From positions 1-26,513 of the IMG/VR virus record IMGVR_UViG_3300022074_000317: a stretch of DNA of 26,513 nt; one strand, written 5' to 3'. The position numbers and the translations under genes were made by a program. The stretch comes from a virus. The notes beneath the pieces are model-generated. The model did no database searches. It was not told the origin of the DNA and was given only the letters and a program-made list of their open reading frames with translations. Shown piece by piece: positions 12,346-20,632 of this stretch (positions are counted from its first letter, which is position 1; each line of letters opens with the position of its first letter).

Positions 12346-12746
12346 TTGTTCAGTACACCTAGTTGTATCTTCTTTTTCTTTTCTGTCAACCATTTTTTAG
12401 GTATCTCCTTATCTGTCCACTCGAATCCATACTTGTCACACCAATCACAATAACGTGTCTTAGAATTTTTATGAATCTTGTTGTATGCGTTTTGAAATAA
12501 AAACCTGATGTCCAGATCAGGGTACTGCTCCTGTACTAACAAATGCTTTACTCTATCAGTAGGTTTAAACCATCCTTTCGCTTCGATAATAATACCATTG
12601 TTAAGAATAAAGTCAGGCTTATAGAGTCTAAACATTTGTACTGCGTATTTAATGGATAGTTTTTCATATATAATCCTTTGCTTTTGAGAACGTAATACCT
12701 TTGCTACGTCCTCTTCAAACCTACTCCTGAACTGTGTTTTGGGCAT
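12336..12746 (-). CDS. T7 endonuclease I-like Holliday-junction resolvase (136 aa)
   Basis: Cleaves branched DNA during phage recombination and before packaging. It resembles T7 gp3 along most of its length: FRSRFEEDV near the start, YKPDFILNNGIIIEAKGW, then DRVKHLLVQEQYPDLDIR and IPKKWL. The predicted PD-(D/E)xK residues are E11, D45, E55 and K57; D45/E55/K57 have the same spacing as D55/E65/K67 of T7. Length is close to the T7 protein (149 aa). It overlaps the RecB/Cas4-like nuclease gene upstream by 26 bases and the DUF3310 gene downstream. Confidence 0.9.
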   Translation of the reverse strand: MPKTQFRSRFEEDVAKVLRSQKQRIIYEKLSIKYAVQMFRLYKPDFILNNGIIIEAKGWFKPTDRVKHLLVQEQYPDLDIRFLFQNAYNKIHKNSKTRYCDWCDKYGFEWTDKEIPKKWLTEKKKKIQLGVLNKWK

Positions 12747-13587
12747 TAGCTAAGTATACGTAATTAATTAATGGTGGATTAGAAGACTTAGAAACCTTTG
12801 ATGGGAGAACCTCTAAGTCATCCCAACACTTTTCTCTGTAGTTGCACAAGCTACACTCTACTCCTAGTTTTAAATTACCACTAGGTTTACCATAGTATGT
12901 TTCTTCAACAGGCTCATAGCATCTTTCAAATGCACCACCATCGTTGATATACGATACAGTTTCTTCTATCTTATTTATCTCTTTATCCATGTCTACATCT
13001 TCGGCACTAACATATTTAAAGTTACCATTAGCTTTGTTAATTACCCACCAACCGCCAACAGGAACACCCTTGGCTTTTGCGTAACCAACTAGCTGTGCTA
13101 CATAACCAAAGCTGTCCTTGCCACTTAGTGTAGCAAAGTCTACAAACTTATTCTCGTAAGACCAAGGAGAGGCAGACTTTACGTCATCAACCTTACCGTT
13201 CATAACCATGTCGTATGATCCATCAACTTTGCTGTCGCTAAGTTTTAACGTAACCTTATCACTGTCCTCAAACTTTACATTAGATGCCCTTAGTAATCCC
13301 TTAAACACTGCCTCTACAATATCACCTAAAATCATATTAATAATAAAGAAAGGAGAGTTGGGTAGCTTATCCTCAGGGGCGTTCTTATCAAACCAAAGCT
13401 GACATCTCTTACGTCCTATGTTGGACATCCTCAACTTAAATTCTCTTTTACCCCCTGAGAACTGGCGGTCTAACGAATCCCTTACATCTTTAGCTACGAG
13501 GTCAAGAATAGCACCGTCAACACTAGCTTCACCTAGCATGACTTTTTGTAAGAAAGAATGTACCGCCAACTCTGCAGGATGGTTCAT
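12721..13587 (-). CDS. PD-(D/E)XK nuclease, Cas4/RecB-like with probable Fe-S cluster (288 aa)
   Basis: A probable DNA exonuclease for recombination or host DNA breakdown. Core motifs in order: G88-D89-x-x-E92, D126 in GSYD, D135-V-K137, and Q165 in QLVGYA, the QxxxYA signature of RecB-type nucleases. One cysteine before the core (C62 in RKRCQLWF) and three after it (C245, C248, C254 in CSLCNYREKC) reproduce the 1+3 pattern that holds a 4Fe-4S cluster in Cas4, AddB and Dna2; the cluster is inferred. No cas1 or cas2 lies nearby, so this is a replication-module nuclease, not a CRISPR gene. GAGGAG precedes the ATG at 13587. Confidence 0.85.
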   Translation of the reverse strand: MNHPAELAVHSFLQKVMLGEASVDGAILDLVAKDVRDSLDRQFSGGKREFKLRMSNIGRKRCQLWFDKNAPEDKLPNSPFFIINMILGDIVEAVFKGLLRASNVKFEDSDKVTLKLSDSKVDGSYDMVMNGKVDDVKSASPWSYENKFVDFATLSGKDSFGYVAQLVGYAKAKGVPVGGWWVINKANGNFKYVSAEDVDMDKEINKIEETVSYINDGGAFERCYEPVEETYYGKPSGNLKLGVECSLCNYREKCWDDLEVLPSKVSKSSNPPLINYVYLANAQNTVQE

Positions 13588-13589
13588 GC

Positions 13590-14471
13590 CTACTCCTCTA
13601 TCTCAATGATTTTAGAAGCAATCTCTTCTTCGTCTCCTGACAACTCGTCAGGTCGATGATGCTCCTCCCACTTACTCAATGTGATAGTGTTCATAGACTC
13701 TACCCACTCGACAAAATTATTTAGTGTCTCCTGATCATCAGTGTCAATCTCTACTAACTCACCTAGATATGGTTTCATAACAGCGTAGGTAGCTCCACTA
13801 GGTATACTCTTTACTTGTGACGACATGTGAACTAAATGTTGAATAGGGAGTCTATTCTTTCTTTGTATCTGAGAAAACAAGTCAGTCATAGCCTTAAAAC
13901 TGTCACGGTTTTTTATTCTCATTAAGAAAGGAAACTCCTTTACTTCAGTAGGTTTACCCTCAGAATCCTTTGGGCTGTCGAGTGTACACAAACCAAATAT
14001 GATCTTGAACCTGTCGGTACTTCTCATAAGGTCTTGTGTTTCTTGAGGCAACGAGTCAAAGTCCTTAACATAACCAGAGGGTCTACCACAGTTGAACCCA
14101 CCATAATTATCTTTTAAATCACCATTCAAGGACGTTGACATAACAGTGCGTAACATTCTGCCCTCACCACCATCAGGCTTCTGATAGTGCTTATCGTAAC
14201 GCTGAAACTGAAAGCGTTGCATAAACGGACGTATTGTTATCTTGTCACTGTAATAAACAGATTCATCAGGGAACACTACTGAGAAAGCTCCTGCCTTGAC
14301 AATGGCAACTTCCATCATCTCACCATCGACTTTCTTTGTACCCATTACGTTCTGATGAACCTGTTTAATCTCTGCTAACGCTGAGGTAGAACGAGCAGGT
14401 ACGTTTGACATACCCATCAACTCTGCTAAATCAGCACTAGATTTTCCAATTATTGCTAAACCATTTTCCAT
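13590..14471 (-). CDS. Probable phage single-stranded DNA-binding protein (293 aa)
   Basis: No catalytic motif is visible. The assignment rests on position between DNA polymerase and recombination nuclease, on a central region of mixed strands rich in aromatic and basic residues (RPFMQRFQFQRYDKHY near 80-95) and on a strongly acidic tail (about the last 20 residues, DEEEIASKIIEIEE). Such a tail is typical of T7 gp2.5 and other SSBs that recruit partner proteins. It could instead be another replication accessory protein. TTTAGGAGAAA precedes the ATG at 14471; the 36-base gap to the polymerase gene is one of the larger gaps in the operon. Confidence 0.55.
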   Translation of the reverse strand: MENGLAIIGKSSADLAELMGMSNVPARSTSALAEIKQVHQNVMGTKKVDGEMMEVAIVKAGAFSVVFPDESVYYSDKITIRPFMQRFQFQRYDKHYQKPDGGEGRMLRTVMSTSLNGDLKDNYGGFNCGRPSGYVKDFDSLPQETQDLMRSTDRFKIIFGLCTLDSPKDSEGKPTEVKEFPFLMRIKNRDSFKAMTDLFSQIQRKNRLPIQHLVHMSSQVKSIPSGATYAVMKPYLGELVEIDTDDQETLNNFVEWVESMNTITLSKWEEHHRPDELSGDEEEIASKIIEIEE

Positions 14472-14507
14472 ATGTATATTTTCTCCTAAATAAGAAAGTG
14501 AATTATA

Positions 14508-16580
14508 TCACTGAACATCTGCTACGTCAAGCCAATTATCACCTATTTTTGACTCTAATAGCATTGGTACATTTACATCTATATCGTAATGACTCTCTAT
14601 TATAATCTTTAGGTTCTTGTTGACCTGTCGTATTATGTTCAGCACCTTGTCAACTTCTGCAGGATGAACATCCAACACTACAGAATCATGCACACTGTTT
14701 ACTAGCATACTATTTAAATTATCTATCTTAAGTAGCTTCTCTATCTCTATAAGAACTATAGGAACTATATCGCCAGTAGCAAACCCTTGTACAGGGTAGT
14801 TCTTTATCATAGTGAAGTGTGTAGGCGCACCGCTTGCTCGTCTCTCTACATCTGGAAAAGCGTACTGCCTACCTGAGGGTATCTTTATCCTGCCAAGATT
14901 TATAGCTTCATCACCTAACTTTTTGTGCCACTTAGCTATACCTCTATACTTGCCCATAAAGTGCGTATAATACTCAGCCTCAGCTTTCGTTCTACCGAAC
15001 CCTGTAGCTCCGTAGAGAGGCGCAAAGGTATGTGCCTTAGCTTCTTGCCTAGACGTAGGTTGTCCTGCCTCAGAGATGATTTTAGCGGTGTAGGAGTGAA
15101 CATCAAAACCTGTAGACACTTCTTCCATAGCAACTTTATCTTGCGAAAGAAGTGCTGCCACCCTAAATTCTAGCTGTGCAAAGTCTGCTTCAAGTATCTT
15201 ACCCTGCGTACCATACTCAGGCTTGTTCCAACGAGAGATAAACACCCTCTTAACAGGAAACGTACCGCCTCTTGGCATGTTCTGCATGTTAGGATCTGCT
15301 CCACTAAACCTGCCAGTGGCTGTCCTATGTTGTAACAACTTAACATGTAGTCTGTTATCACTCTTTGTATGTATAGTTATACCCTCTACAAAAGCAGAAA
15401 GGTAACTAGACACCGCACTTTGTCTCTTCAGATCAGATAAGAATGACTCTGCGTAGGTAAGACCCTTTGACTTAGCTATATTTATAAGACCTTCTAAGTT
15501 GCCCTTGCTTGTAGAGAAACCATTAGCACTAACCCATGTCTTTGATGGTGGAAAGAAGCCAAGTCCTGCCATTTCATTTAGCTTTGCAAGCCTGTAGCCT
15601 CTCGTATCGCAGTCTACACAGCGACTAGGCTTGGCAAATGGAGTCCCATCCTTCTTGATCTTGCGTATTTTACCCTCACCGTTGCACGTTTTGCATACAC
15701 TAGCCTTAGTTTTTACCATCATAGAACTATTTTCCTTGACAGCCTTCCTAAATTCTTCTTTTGTGTCTGCATAGTCGAAGGCAACTGCCCATTTCTTCTT
15801 GTCGTGTAGTATTCTAGAGTAGATAACTTGACTAACCTGCTCTGGAGAGTTAAGATTTATGGGAGTATCGCCCATTAATTTCTTGACAAATGTGTTTAAC
15901 CTGTTTTCTATAGCTAAAAGCTCATCTTCGAAGTCTTTTCTAACCTGAGCGAGGGCATTTTTGTCCACCGCAAAGCCATTCATGTACATTCTTGCTAGTG
16001 TTTTGCACACTTCGTTGTTTATATCACGCACCTTTACTAAAGATTGGGACTCAGGCTTATCATACTCGTCCATCAACTTCCAATAAAGCTCTCTCGTTAC
16101 TCTCAAGTCCTGTTTCAGGTACTCTGATAGCTCGTCAAGAGGTATATCATCTGTTTGAAACCCTCTAGTAAAGTAATTTTTAAGTGTATCTGACTTCTTC
16201 ATGTCTAAATTGTGTCGTATTGCACAGTTTTCTAAGCTAACAGACCCCTTCTGACCACGTTGTAGTATATAATCCCCCAACATTGTGTCAAATATCTTTC
16301 CATCATACTTAAATCCACACCCCCAAAGCCACTGAAGGTCGTATTGTAGGTTGTGACCTATCAATAATGTGGTGTTGTCAAGCACTCTTTGTAATCTTTT
16401 GTCTGCATCATCGTCTTCTATTGTCTTTTCTTTGTGATCGAACACAAATACTGTCGCCTCATTGTCCAGATAATCTGACACACCAACAAGTGTCAAAGAA
16501 TTGTCAGGCTCAAAAGGATCAAGATGCAACTTACCATCCCTTTTCGTTGTTGTATTCTCTACATCAAGTACAATCTTCAT
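14508..16580 (-). CDS. polA: Family A DNA polymerase with 3'-5' exonuclease and inserted DnaJ-type zinc module (690 aa)
   Basis: Replicates the phage genome. The proofreading domain has D6/E8 (LDVEN), N77/D81 (GHNLQYDLQWL) and Y154/D158 (YLKQDLRVTREL). Residues 296-329 hold CKTCNGEGKI and CVDCDTRGY, a CxxCxGxG...CxxCxxxGY zinc module like half of the DnaJ central domain. The polymerase domain has motif A D466 (ADFAQLEFR), motif B R511/K515/F519/Y523 (RQEAKAHTFAPLYG) and motif C H631/D632 (VHD). F519 aligns with Phe762 of E. coli Pol I. I chose the ATG at 16580, which overlaps the upstream stop as ATGA; the frame stays open to 16634, but that extension would be inside the helicase gene. The inserted module is the known hallmark of HMO-2011-type phages. 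Confidence 0.95.
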   Translation of the reverse strand: MKIVLDVENTTTKRDGKLHLDPFEPDNSLTLVGVSDYLDNEATVFVFDHKEKTIEDDDADKRLQRVLDNTTLLIGHNLQYDLQWLWGCGFKYDGKIFDTMLGDYILQRGQKGSVSLENCAIRHNLDMKKSDTLKNYFTRGFQTDDIPLDELSEYLKQDLRVTRELYWKLMDEYDKPESQSLVKVRDINNEVCKTLARMYMNGFAVDKNALAQVRKDFEDELLAIENRLNTFVKKLMGDTPINLNSPEQVSQVIYSRILHDKKKWAVAFDYADTKEEFRKAVKENSSMMVKTKASVCKTCNGEGKIRKIKKDGTPFAKPSRCVDCDTRGYRLAKLNEMAGLGFFPPSKTWVSANGFSTSKGNLEGLINIAKSKGLTYAESFLSDLKRQSAVSSYLSAFVEGITIHTKSDNRLHVKLLQHRTATGRFSGADPNMQNMPRGGTFPVKRVFISRWNKPEYGTQGKILEADFAQLEFRVAALLSQDKVAMEEVSTGFDVHSYTAKIISEAGQPTSRQEAKAHTFAPLYGATGFGRTKAEAEYYTHFMGKYRGIAKWHKKLGDEAINLGRIKIPSGRQYAFPDVERRASGAPTHFTMIKNYPVQGFATGDIVPIVLIEIEKLLKIDNLNSMLVNSVHDSVVLDVHPAEVDKVLNIIRQVNKNLKIIIESHYDIDVNVPMLLESKIGDNWLDVADVQ

Positions 16581-17089
16581 GCTGAATATATACCTCTCTC
16601 TACATCTAGCTCGACATGAACTGTGCCATGCCAACCTGTTAGTTTGTTTTTAGCCAATCTAATATGACGTTGAGGATCGTTACTATCCTGCCCTTCAATC
16701 TCAGGATTCTTACTAATTAATAACATCAAATCTGCTTCGGCTGCCTTACCAGTTTTACTGCCCTCAAGCATAGATTGGTTAACATTTATCTTACCTTCCG
16801 CTTCTGCTGATAGCTGAGACATCCATATGATAGCGCAGTTGTACTTCTTTGCTATGTTTCTAGCGTGAATTGCTGCCTCTTTTAAATAAATATCTGACCT
16901 ATCTGAACCTGACACTGCGAACTTATCTCCCATATCGAGAACTATTATATCAGGTTTAACGCTTTTTGCAAGCTGTTCTACATAATCCATACGTTTATCT
17001 GTAGCATCTTTGATAGATAGTAACTCTTTAACAGGAGCGTATCTCTTAATAGCCATGTCTCTATTCTCCAGAACCTCTTCACTAGACAT
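16577..17089 (-). CDS. DnaB-like replicative helicase, C-terminal part (170 aa) downstream of an in-frame stop
   Basis: This is the second half of the RecA-like motor of a replicative helicase. It carries Walker B (DIIVLDMGDKF, D52), the H3-like polar strand (CAIIWMSQLS, Q92), the AAEADLMLLI strand and a likely arginine-finger region (RHIRLAKNKL). It lacks a Walker A motif, which is in the piece at 17111-17800 in the same frame. Seven sense codons and one TGA separate the two pieces. No Shine-Dalgarno sequence precedes the ATG at 17089, so independent translation is unlikely. Joined, the two make a 407-aa helicase of normal layout. The stop overlaps the polymerase start. Confidence 0.85.
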   Translation of the reverse strand: MSSEEVLENRDMAIKRYAPVKELLSIKDATDKRMDYVEQLAKSVKPDIIVLDMGDKFAVSGSDRSDIYLKEAAIHARNIAKKYNCAIIWMSQLSAEAEGKINVNQSMLEGSKTGKAAEADLMLLISKNPEIEGQDSNDPQRHIRLAKNKLTGWHGTVHVELDVERGIYSA

Positions 17090-17110
17090 CTTAGATTTAC
17101 AATATAGATA

Positions 17111-17113
17111 TCA
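17111..17113 (-). other. In-frame TGA splitting the helicase
   Basis: The codon after RVGL is TGA and the frame then continues without a shift (YLYCKSK, MSSEEV...). The surrounding NEEAYKRVG-x-RY-like motif usually carries a positively charged residue at this point, so a CGA-to-TGA or AGA-to-TGA change is the simplest origin. TGA is a normal stop elsewhere in this genome, for example at the ATGA junctions, so general recoding is unlikely. Confidence 0.8.
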
Positions 17114-17800
17114 CAAGCCAACTCTTTTGTATGCTTCTTCGTTACACAGCACAACACACCTAGCACCTTGATCTATGAAGCCACCCTCTGATGCTATAAG
17201 ACTAGCATGAAAAGATGTTTTACCAGTGTTAGGTCTTGCACCAACTATAACAAAGTGACCACCACTAAGTCCCTCGACTCGTCTACGTAAGGACGGAATG
17301 TTAAACTTCCATTGATACTTTACATTAAGATGTTCTAGTAACGTATTGAAACTTATATCATCTCCCTCAAAGCGGAAGCTAGGTGTGAAGTCATCTTGAT
17401 AGTTGTCAAGTATATTCCTCAGTGGTTCTAAGTTAGACTTAGTTCCGTTAACATAATCAAATCCTAGATTAGCAATCTCCTCTCCTACCATTTGTTGAAA
17501 CAATTTAGACAGCACCTCTTTGGCTATCTCGTTATTCATAGCCTCTTCTCTCGACAACTTGCTGAACAGAACCTCGTAAGAAGCTCTGTTCGCTGATGTC
17601 ATAGTGCCGTTGTTAGAAAAGAACAATGCTTGTAGTTCTGTCAAAGAGACATCCCTCTCGTATTTATGCATCGTTGTATCAAGCGTTTGCTTAATCTTCC
17701 TAACATCTTTACTAAACAATCTATCTGGACACTTACTGCCCTTATGATCGTCATAGAAGTCTTTATGCATTAGACTCCTAATTAGTGCTAGTTCTATCAT
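17111..17800 (-). CDS. DnaB-like replicative helicase, N-terminal part (229 aa) with Walker A
   Basis: The N-terminal 150 residues are helical and match the usual accessory domain in size. The motor begins at about residue 165. Walker A is GARPNTGKTS with G193, K194 and T195. The next motif is VVLCNEEAYKRV, with the catalytic-type glutamate at 221 or 222. The protein stops there at TGA, before Walker B, so alone it could not hydrolyse ATP normally. A strong ribosome site (AAGGAGAG) precedes the ATG at 17800, which lies 23 bases inside the GIY-YIG gene. Helicase and primase are separate proteins here, unlike T7 gp4. Confidence 0.88.
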   Translation of the reverse strand: MIELALIRSLMHKDFYDDHKGSKCPDRLFSKDVRKIKQTLDTTMHKYERDVSLTELQALFFSNNGTMTSANRASYEVLFSKLSREEAMNNEIAKEVLSKLFQQMVGEEIANLGFDYVNGTKSNLEPLRNILDNYQDDFTPSFRFEGDDISFNTLLEHLNVKYQWKFNIPSLRRRVEGLSGGHFVIVGARPNTGKTSFHASLIASEGGFIDQGARCVVLCNEEAYKRVGL

Positions 17801-18275
17801 TAACTCTCCTTAATGCTGAATCAAATTTGCTTTTATTATAATTAGTAAGATGAAACCACTCGCCTCTTCGCTCCTTTGATTTAAAAGTAAAGTAGTTGTG
17901 CATCAACTTCTCTGACGCATTTCTGTCATCTACTTTTACAAAGGTCACTAGCTCGTAATCTCTGTGAGGACTACTAGTCTGATAACTTTTACACCTATCT
18001 GTAGCATCGACAGCCTTACCCACTTTGTACCAATCCTTCCACGCAGGGTTTTTAAGAATGTATACTTCTCCTTTTGCACAAGTCTCGTAGTTTTGCAAGG
18101 CAGAAAAAGCAGCATCATTAAATGTTCTGTACTTTCCCGGCTTATACAATGGATGTGACTTCGATACATACTTACCGTCTACATACATCTGTGCATCGTT
18201 CCTTTTCTTTACCGCCTCAACACTATCTTTATAATAATAATTCTTACCTGTCAATGGATTTACTGCATCAAGCAT
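17778..18275 (-). CDS. GIY-YIG (T5orf172/MUG113-like) nuclease-family protein (165 aa)
   Basis: The core at residues 69-141 reads GEVYILKN, YKVGKAVDATDRCKSYQT, then SEKLMHNYF and GEWFHL, the layout of the T5orf172 branch of GIY-YIG nucleases. Likely catalytic residues are Y72, Y83, R94 and E122. The first 68 residues are basic and tyrosine-rich and may bind DNA. Proteins of this type include free-standing homing endonucleases and phage nucleases of unknown role. It lies between the primase and helicase genes but overlaps both (8 and 23 bases), so it is settled in the operon rather than freshly inserted. Confidence 0.8.
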   Translation of the reverse strand: MLDAVNPLTGKNYYYKDSVEAVKKRNDAQMYVDGKYVSKSHPLYKPGKYRTFNDAAFSALQNYETCAKGEVYILKNPAWKDWYKVGKAVDATDRCKSYQTSSPHRDYELVTFVKVDDRNASEKLMHNYFTFKSKERRGEWFHLTNYNKSKFDSALRRVNDRTSTN

Positions 18276-19056
18276 TAACTAACTCCTTTAATTTAAGCAT
18301 GTCTGCTTCTCGTTTATATTTAATGTCATCCTCTATGTGCATAGCCACCACCTGAGAAGGATCACAATAGCTCTTTAACTCTTTGGTATACTCTATTGTT
18401 TTACCAAGAGCATCTGGATCAAGAGCAACAATAATCTTATCAAACGTATCAAGATATTCTTTATGCTCTCTCAAAAGATTCGTTCCTAGAAGTGCAACAC
18501 CAGTGACTCCTAGTATGTTCTGTCCCACCACTGTAGCAGAGACGCAATCCTCAACCACTACAGCTATCTTCCTGCATGGATTAATACAGTAAGAATAATA
18601 CTTACCTGACTTACCATACTTGTACCACTTTGGATGCGAGTCATACAAAGCTCTACCAATAGCGTCAACAAGTCTGCCATTCTTATATATAGGAAACACT
18701 GCTCTCTTATCTTTGACATCGTAGAGCAGGTCTATCATAAGATCCCATCGTGCTTTAAAGCGTTGCACATAAGCGTTATCTCCATCTGTTATCTGCTCAG
18801 GCATCTCAAACTTCTCGTGTGGCTGTCCCTCTATCTCGCCACTTAGTTTTTGTTTAATAGTATCTACTAACATGTTCGTCAGGAAAGAACCCTTCACATC
18901 ACACGATGCACGATAGCAGTTGTACAGCAACATGCCATCTAGGTTACTGACCGAAAACTTCTTGACACCATCACACTTAGGACAATCCATATTAAGTGTC
19001 TCTCCTTCTTTGATGTCAAGGTTCTGTAAGAAATCTCTTGATGGTAGGTTAGGCAT
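18268..19056 (-). CDS. TOPRIM DNA primase with zinc-binding domain (262 aa)
   Basis: Makes RNA primers at the replication fork. An N-terminal zinc ribbon is formed by C25/C28 (CPKCDG) and C47/C52 (NCYRASC). The TOPRIM fold follows, with E169 in VVVEDCVSATVVG and D213/D215 in IIVALDPDALGK, the metal-binding acidic residues. It resembles the primase half of T7 gp4 but ends without a helicase domain. I chose the ATG at 19056, which has GGGAG upstream and overlaps the integrase stop by 8 bases; the longer open frame to 19188 runs inside the integrase gene. The GIY-YIG gene overlaps its end. Confidence 0.9.
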   Translation of the reverse strand: MPNLPSRDFLQNLDIKEGETLNMDCPKCDGVKKFSVSNLDGMLLYNCYRASCDVKGSFLTNMLVDTIKQKLSGEIEGQPHEKFEMPEQITDGDNAYVQRFKARWDLMIDLLYDVKDKRAVFPIYKNGRLVDAIGRALYDSHPKWYKYGKSGKYYSYCINPCRKIAVVVEDCVSATVVGQNILGVTGVALLGTNLLREHKEYLDTFDKIIVALDPDALGKTIEYTKELKSYCDPSQVVAMHIEDDIKYKREADMLKLKELVNA

Positions 19057-19972
19057 TCTTGTATGTCTCCCTTCTACTGAGTGCGTTACTCGCTGAGTTG
19101 TAGGTATGTTTAATGTAGGGTGCGATTGAGTTAGGGCTATTGTGTCCTGACACTGCCATGATCTGAGTGGTATCAACACCTGCTTCAACCATCTCAGTGA
19201 TAGCTGTTCTTCTCATGTCCATAGCTGTAAGCTCCTTTGGTAAGTTCGCTACTTGTTTAATCTGATTTACCAGTGGGCTAATATCTACATCATTGTAGAT
19301 TCTATACTGCCCACCTCTAGGATAGGGGTGAGGTACAACATAGTTTTGAAAGCTAAACTCTTCATGCTGTTTAGTGAGCATGGCAAGTAGATTCTCTTCT
19401 ATAGGCAAATGTACCTCTGCCCTCTTCTTCGATTGTTCGAGGTCAAGTCTTTTTTCATCGAAGTTGATATTGCTCCACTCTAGAGATCTCATATCCCCTA
19501 CCCTTTGAGCGAATGAGTAAGCCATGTGTACAATCAAACCAATGCTTCTCCACTTATATTGAGAGTAAGCCGTGTCTAAGAACACCTTTACTTGATCGCT
19601 TGTCCACATGACCTTACGTCCACGCTCCTTCATCTTACTAACGCTCCGCATTGGGTTACGCACAATCAACTCCAGTTCCTCAGCCATATTGAGAACTATT
19701 GAAGTCGTTGTCGCCATCACGTTAGCAGTTCGTACACCTCTCTTCAACCACATCTGATACGCTGACTTACAGTGAGCCACACTGAGTTTAGCCAACTTAA
19801 CATCCCCTAACTTTGATGCAGGAGTTATTGGTGTACCTAACACTCCAGACAGCCTATACTCATACCCTTTCTGAGTCTGCGGTCTAAGTGCCAAGAACTG
19901 AGGACTACGTAGGTAGTAGCCTACCATATCACTCAGATTCTTTATCTCTTTTTTGTTGTCTTGTAAGTTCAT
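19049..19972 (-). CDS. Tyrosine recombinase / phage integrase (307 aa)
   Basis: Site-specific recombinase family. A SAM-like core-binding domain occupies about residues 12-115 and the catalytic domain about 120-295. Predicted active-site residues are R157 (AQRVGDMRSLEW), K182 or K183 (SKKRAEVHLP), R254 (MDMRRT), H277 (GHNS) and nucleophile Y286 (APYIKH), with the standard nine-residue H-Y spacing. The first histidine of the usual HxLR box is a methionine (M251), an uncommon but tolerated variant. It overlaps the small membrane gene upstream by 44 bases; a later ATG at 19924 would cut into the core-binding domain. No attachment site could be recognised, so integration is unproven; resolution of genome multimers is an alternative role. 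Confidence 0.9.
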   Translation of the reverse strand: MNLQDNKKEIKNLSDMVGYYLRSPQFLALRPQTQKGYEYRLSGVLGTPITPASKLGDVKLAKLSVAHCKSAYQMWLKRGVRTANVMATTTSIVLNMAEELELIVRNPMRSVSKMKERGRKVMWTSDQVKVFLDTAYSQYKWRSIGLIVHMAYSFAQRVGDMRSLEWSNINFDEKRLDLEQSKKRAEVHLPIEENLLAMLTKQHEEFSFQNYVVPHPYPRGGQYRIYNDVDISPLVNQIKQVANLPKELTAMDMRRTAITEMVEAGVDTTQIMAVSGHNSPNSIAPYIKHTYNSASNALSRRETYKNA

Positions 19973-20066
19973 TATAATTACCTACGCAAAGTGCTACGAA
20001 AATCAAAAACCATATTACTACATATACGAGCATTTGTAAATCCCATATTTTCATTTTCTTTCCCAT
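19929..20066 (-). CDS. Small single-span membrane protein next to endolysin (45 aa)
   Basis: A short gene starting inside the end of the endolysin gene (16-base overlap) and ending inside the integrase gene. Residues about 11-29 (MLVYVVIWFLIFVALCVG) are one strong transmembrane segment, with a Lys-rich N-terminus and a charged C-tail (RQQKRDKESE). Its position right after the endolysin makes a holin or pinholin-like role worth considering, but one span and context are the only evidence. No clear ribosome site; translation is probably coupled. Confidence 0.6.
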   Translation of the reverse strand: MGKKMKIWDLQMLVYVVIWFLIFVALCVGNYNELTRQQKRDKESE

Positions 20067-20479
20067 CTGTAGAATATGTGTCTGTTTATCCTAACTGTTT
20101 TAGTCTTTGTTCTTGCCCATGCAGGTCGCACATAGGTTGCGTGATAGTGCGTTGCACCCTCTGTAACATCTAGTGTTATCTTATTTGTCATAACCATAGA
20201 CGCATATCGAATAGAGTTTTGCCACTTCTCACTTTTCATATTGACATCATCTTTCTTGCCATCACAATACCATGAGAACTGGCATTTGCCAAGAACAACT
20301 TTGCCATTTTTATATGTGAGTCCTTGCTTGATCACATCACATATAGTATTAGGGTAACGGCTGTCCTTTACTCTGTTCATAACTACTTGTGCTACAGCTA
20401 TCTGTCCTGCCATTGGCTGATTTTTAGCTTCATGGTAGATGTTTGTTGCCATACACATCAATGCTGTTTCTAATATCAT
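20051..20479 (-). CDS. SleB-type cell wall hydrolase, probable endolysin (142 aa)
   Basis: A peptidoglycan hydrolase of the SleB (Hydrolase_2) family, likely the lysis enzyme. It has MCMATNIYHEAKNQPMAGQ with the predicted catalytic glutamate E17, then AVAQVVMNRVKD, CQFSWYCDG and GATHYHATYVRPAWA, all typical of the family, and covers the domain from end to end. No signal peptide is present, because the N-terminus belongs to the fold; a holin or other export route would be needed. Its location in the early-strand operon, not with the structural genes, is notable. Confidence 0.9.
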   Translation of the reverse strand: MILETALMCMATNIYHEAKNQPMAGQIAVAQVVMNRVKDSRYPNTICDVIKQGLTYKNGKVVLGKCQFSWYCDGKKDDVNMKSEKWQNSIRYASMVMTNKITLDVTEGATHYHATYVRPAWARTKTKTVRINRHIFYRWERK

Positions 20480-20482
20480 CCG

Positions 20483-20632
20483 TTACTCTTCTGTTTTTTC
20501 TTCATTTATTATCTTCTTGAATCGTTGTACAATACTGAAGTCTTCTTCAATAGTATTGTCAAACTCTTTATCAATAAGTTTACCATCTAATATAGATAGG
20601 TCGTTCCAGTCATTTTCAAATTCATGTTTCAT
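20483..20632 (-). CDS. Small acidic protein (49 aa), unknown
   Basis: Begins MKHEFENDWNDLSILDGK and ends INEEKTEE; strongly acidic with a short central helix. GAGGT lies at good spacing before the ATG at 20632, whose first base is shared with the upstream stop (TAATG). It ends three bases before the endolysin start. The junction pattern and ribosome site support a real gene; no function can be given. Confidence 0.65.
   Translation of the reverse strand: MKHEFENDWNDLSILDGKLIDKEFDNTIEEDFSIVQRFKKIINEEKTEE

What the first reader, a model, noticed from the sequence alone, without database searches (positions are those of the whole stretch)
16577..17800. Replicative helicase split by one in-frame TGA
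Walker A and Walker B halves lie in the same frame, separated by TGA and seven sense codons. The downstream ATG has no ribosome site. Options: sequencing or assembly error, a real disabling mutation, stop readthrough, or two subunits that assemble. The change fits CGA to TGA, a C-to-T transition. Since TGA is a normal stop at many junctions here, global recoding is unlikely.
Basis: partly seen in the sequence, partly recalled or inferred. Interest (0 to 1): 0.65.

Follow-up and report, generated by a model that had tools for sequence, protein, structure and literature searches.

The report
Isolated nonsense change in phage helicase
This marine phage fragment carries an ordinary DNA-copying helicase gene with one premature stop codon that none of about 80 related phage sequences share, so it is most likely an assembly or sequencing error or a single dead mutant, not a new kind of split enzyme.

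Summary
On the - strand, 17800-16577 reads as one DnaB-type replicative helicase (407 codons) broken by a single in-frame TGA at 17113-17111; the two halves match the two ends of Pfam DnaB_C. The window is a fragment of an HMO-2011-type marine phage (relatives: Roseobacter phages CRP-603/-2/-1, Puniceispirillum phage HMO-2011). All 73 close IMG/VR relatives, two more found by DNA pattern, seven distant ones and three cultured phages have one uninterrupted helicase with arginine at this position. No other record of the viral collection has TGA or TGG there. The nearest relative, L002, differs from the window's helicase by 15 silent codons and this stop, with no missense change before or after it. 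In seven replication and nucleotide-metabolism genes of these loci (about 135,000 aligned codons) no other internal stop was found. There is no suppressor tRNA, no known recoding RNA element and no unusual fold after the TGA. TGA=Trp would not give the conserved arginine. So the stop is a recent one-base change confined to this contig: an assembly or sequencing error, or a rare loss-of-function allele. Only reads could separate these two. There is no support for conserved readthrough or an evolved two-subunit helicase.

The parts
16577..17800 (-). DnaB-type replicative helicase gene, interrupted by one in-frame TGA
   Evidence: intact in all relatives
17111..17113 (-). in-frame TGA at codon 230, where relatives have a conserved arginine
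17111..17800 (-). N-terminal part (229 codons plus stop), with Walker A
16577..17089 (-). possible C-terminal reading frame from the in-frame ATG, with Walker B; no ribosome site
14508..16580 (-). family A DNA polymerase; its ATG overlaps the helicase stop codon (ATGA)

Best explanation
This is the ordinary single-polypeptide DnaB-type helicase of an HMO-2011-type marine phage, in which this one contig shows a single-base change from an arginine codon to TGA. The change is isolated and recent. It is either an error in the assembled sequence (somewhat more likely, about 60%) or a rare loss-of-function allele carried by one phage or a decaying prophage (about 35%). If it is real, translation would stop after 229 residues, just past the NEE motif and before Walker B, giving an inactive helicase. 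Shown: the stop, its absence from relatives, and the silent-only differences elsewhere in the gene. Inferred: loss of function, and the split between error and mutation.
For: All 73 close relatives read arginine at this codon in an intact frame, through CGA, CGG, CGT, CGC, AGA or AGG; the codon varies and the residue does not. Two further contigs have arginine. CRP-603, HMO-2011 and CRP-1 have a single 407-409 aa helicase gene with arginine there. A degenerate search of the viral collection for TGA or TGG at this site found nothing; the exact window 26-mer found nothing. Compared with L002, the helicase has 15 silent codon changes (6 synonymous base changes before the stop, 9 after), no missense and this one nonsense, so both halves were under selection as one protein until very recently. 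No other internal stop was seen in helicase, polymerase, gp30-like, endonuclease, primase, integrase and RNR genes of these loci, about 135,000 aligned codons. [quoted passage not shown]
Against: No reads were available, so the base could not be checked. The viral collection may leave out the window's own record or records very near it, so a small clade of nearly identical phages sharing the TGA cannot be fully excluded (note). No other damage was seen in the replication genes, so the contig is not generally poor.
Confidence: 0.95

Rival explanations
1. Programmed or tolerated stop readthrough makes a full-length helicase from this allele.
For: The frame is open on both sides and all differences from L002 outside the stop are silent.
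Against: The stop is in no relative. TGA is followed by T. No suppressor tRNA, no Rfam element, and the RNA after the stop folds no better than shuffles (z 0.74 and 1.38). The silent-only pattern is equally expected for a very recent change. The rest of the genome, and the host, could still supply a suppressor.
Confidence: 0.025
2. Two separately translated subunits (ATG 17800 and ATG 17089, by termination and reinitiation) assemble into a working split helicase.
For: The in-frame ATG lies only 21 bases past the stop, a distance at which reinitiation can occur (general knowledge).
Against: No ribosome site before ATG 17089. The cut separates Walker A from Walker B within the RecA core. No relative is split. 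The same ATG is also present in intact relatives as an ordinary internal Met, so it is not an adaptation to the stop.
Confidence: 0.015
3. The phage or its host uses another genetic code in which TGA is a sense codon.
For: TGA lies inside one frame.
Against: TGA is the terminal stop of 11 of 28 genes counted. No other core gene was seen to need TGA as sense. The conserved residue is arginine, not the tryptophan of the known TGA reassignment. Relatives with the standard code surround it.
Confidence: 0.005

Closest known systems
DNA helicase of HMO-2011-type phages (CRP-603 gp28 UAW59195.1; HMO-2011 phage1322_11 ADW08448.1; CRP-1 gp15 QBQ72424.1)
   Same: Same gene, length, motifs and place downstream of primase and upstream of DNA polymerase; the N part is 60-66% identical.
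   Different: The named phages have one open frame with arginine at the position where this contig has TGA.
IMG/VR contig IMGVR_UViG_3300030095_000762 (L002)
   Same: 95.8% identical DNA over 8,017 bases; the helicase is identical in amino acids apart from the stop codon.
   Different: Codon 230 is an arginine codon, frame intact.

Membership tests
DnaB-type replicative helicase (Pfam PF03796) | DnaB_C domain over the curated cut-off | tested here: met
   The joined frame scores 46.9 bits against a cut-off of 27, positions 8-245 of 255; each half alone is below the cut-off (21.5 and 22.3 bits).
DnaB-type replicative helicase (Pfam PF03796) | Walker A and Walker B in one uninterrupted polypeptide | tested here: not met
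   TGA at 17113-17111 lies between them; met in all relatives.
HMO-2011-type phage | Core replication genes primase, helicase and DnaJ-containing family A polymerase in order | tested here: met
   Order integrase, primase, helicase, polymerase as in CRP-603 and HMO-2011; the polymerase contains a cysteine-rich DnaJ-like stretch (CKTCNGEG...CVDCDTRG). Core list from PMC9038755. Structural core genes were not checked; the window is a 26.5 kb fragment.
Stop-codon readthrough or recoding gene | Stop conserved among relatives | tested here: not met
   0 of about 85 relatives.
Stop-codon readthrough or recoding gene | Recoding signal or suppressor tRNA | tested here: not met
   (window only; the rest of the genome is not held).
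Split gene by intron or intein | Inserted sequence between the two halves | tested here: not met
   The frame aligns to L002 codon for codon with no gap.

The most novel reading that the evidence does not exclude
A small clade of nearly identical phages, hidden from the searches here, really carries the TGA and makes working helicase by readthrough or as two pieces.
Probability: 0.03. Interest if true: 0.45.

Novelty: not a real feature. Interest (0 to 1): 0.06.

Why it matters
It matters little biologically. It is a clean example of a core phage gene that looks split in one metagenomic contig, and shows that a comparison with relatives settles the matter: the residue is an invariant arginine elsewhere and no relative shares the stop. 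Annotators should treat the two open frames as one helicase gene.

Tried and rejected
Global recoding of TGA: rejected, TGA is a normal terminal stop here. Intron, intein or insertion: rejected, no gap against L002. Frameshift: rejected, both halves are in the same frame. Suppressor tRNA or RNA element in the window: none. Stimulatory fold after the stop: none. Conserved stop in other viral records: none. The degenerate pattern in bacterial genomes hit nine unrelated chance sites, none of which translates as a helicase. An apparent stop in the exonuclease-like gene of 22 relatives was followed up in two (L051, L034): there it is only the normal end of the protein, just before the last aligned residue. 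A structure prediction was not run, since it could not bear on the cause of the stop.

Full report
OBSERVATION. The - strand from 17800 to 16577 reads as one frame of 407 codons with a single TGA at 17113-17111. Walker A (GARPNTGKTS) is before it and Walker B (IIVLDMGD) after it. Pfam DnaB_C matches the joined frame at 46.9 bits (cut-off 27) with one TGA inside; the two parts match opposite ends of the profile. The true start at 17800 has AAGGAGAG just upstream.

WHAT THE PHAGE IS. Helicase and flanking genes match the HMO-2011-type marine phages: CRP-603, CRP-2, CRP-1, CRP-345, HMO-2011 and CRP-207 at 58-66% protein identity for the N part. Gene order integrase, primase, helicase, family A polymerase, two conserved proteins, endonuclease, RNR agrees with CRP-603. 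In these phages helicase, primase and polymerase are core to all members (PMC9038755). The window is a fragment: 26.5 kb against 53-55 kb for the cultured phages.

RELATIVES. A scan of viral contigs with the N part, which does not depend on the codon in question, gave 80 loci. In all 73 close ones the codon is arginine and the frame continues to the end of the gene or of the contig. Six arginine codons are used, so the residue is held while the codon drifts. In seven distant loci the corresponding arginine is also present, one codon on in the printed register. A degenerate DNA search for TGA or TGG at this spot found no record, the exact window sequence found none, and a search allowing CGN or TGN found 41 contigs, all CGN, two of them new. 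The tools warn that the window's own record and very near ones may be left out, so this does not exclude a few near-identical sisters.

RECENT CHANGE. L002 is 95.8% identical over 8 kb, and the aligned stretch including the helicase has no gap. In the helicase it differs by 15 silent codons, no missense change and the stop. Silent changes lie on both sides of the stop (6 before, 9 after). A gene that had been dead, or split into separate subunits, for any length of time would be expected to show some missense or frame damage. It shows none. The stop is therefore recent, or not in the virus at all.

BASE RATE. Over helicase, polymerase, gp30-like, endonuclease, primase, integrase and RNR genes of the 80 loci (about 135,000 aligned codons) no other internal stop was seen. 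Of 1,221 possible transitions in the helicase, 20 give a stop. The event is rare per gene, as expected for consensus errors or rare dead alleles, and needs no special explanation once many contigs are read.

MECHANISM. Readthrough has no support: no suppressor tRNA, no RNA family, RNA after the stop folds no better than shuffles. Two-subunit assembly has no support: no ribosome site, no split relative, and the downstream ATG is an ordinary internal methionine kept in intact relatives too. Recoding is contradicted by 11 normal TGA terminators and by the identity of the residue. What remains is an error in the assembled sequence or a rare nonsense allele. I favour the error slightly, since an allele without helicase should not become the consensus of a replicating population; a low-coverage contig or a decaying prophage (an integrase gene is present) would allow a real one. 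This preference is inference.

VERDICT. A real letter in the contig, an ordinary gene, and no new biology shown. Interest is low.

Noticed in passing
17778-18275, - strand: A T5orf172/MUG113-domain gene (a group that includes GIY-YIG-like proteins, from general knowledge) sits between primase and helicase and overlaps the helicase start. A relative was found in 47 of the 80 loci, ending at or near the helicase start in those compared, but only weakly and elsewhere in CRP-603. It diverges faster than the helicase N part (60% against 93% protein identity in L008-L011), as a mobile or homing-type gene might.
   Followed up: partly
12471-20484: Differences from L002 are clustered: peaks near 12500-13000, 16000, 18000 and 20000 and few between, which suggests recombination patches.
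   Followed up: no
16577-16580, - strand: Helicase stop and polymerase start overlap as ATGA, which suggests translational coupling; a premature helicase stop could then also lower polymerase expression.
   Followed up: no
12721-13587, - strand: The exonuclease-like gene (CRP-603 gp31 position) shows one stop against the window's protein in 22 of 43 relatives; in the two checked the protein simply ends two residues before the window's.
   Followed up: partly
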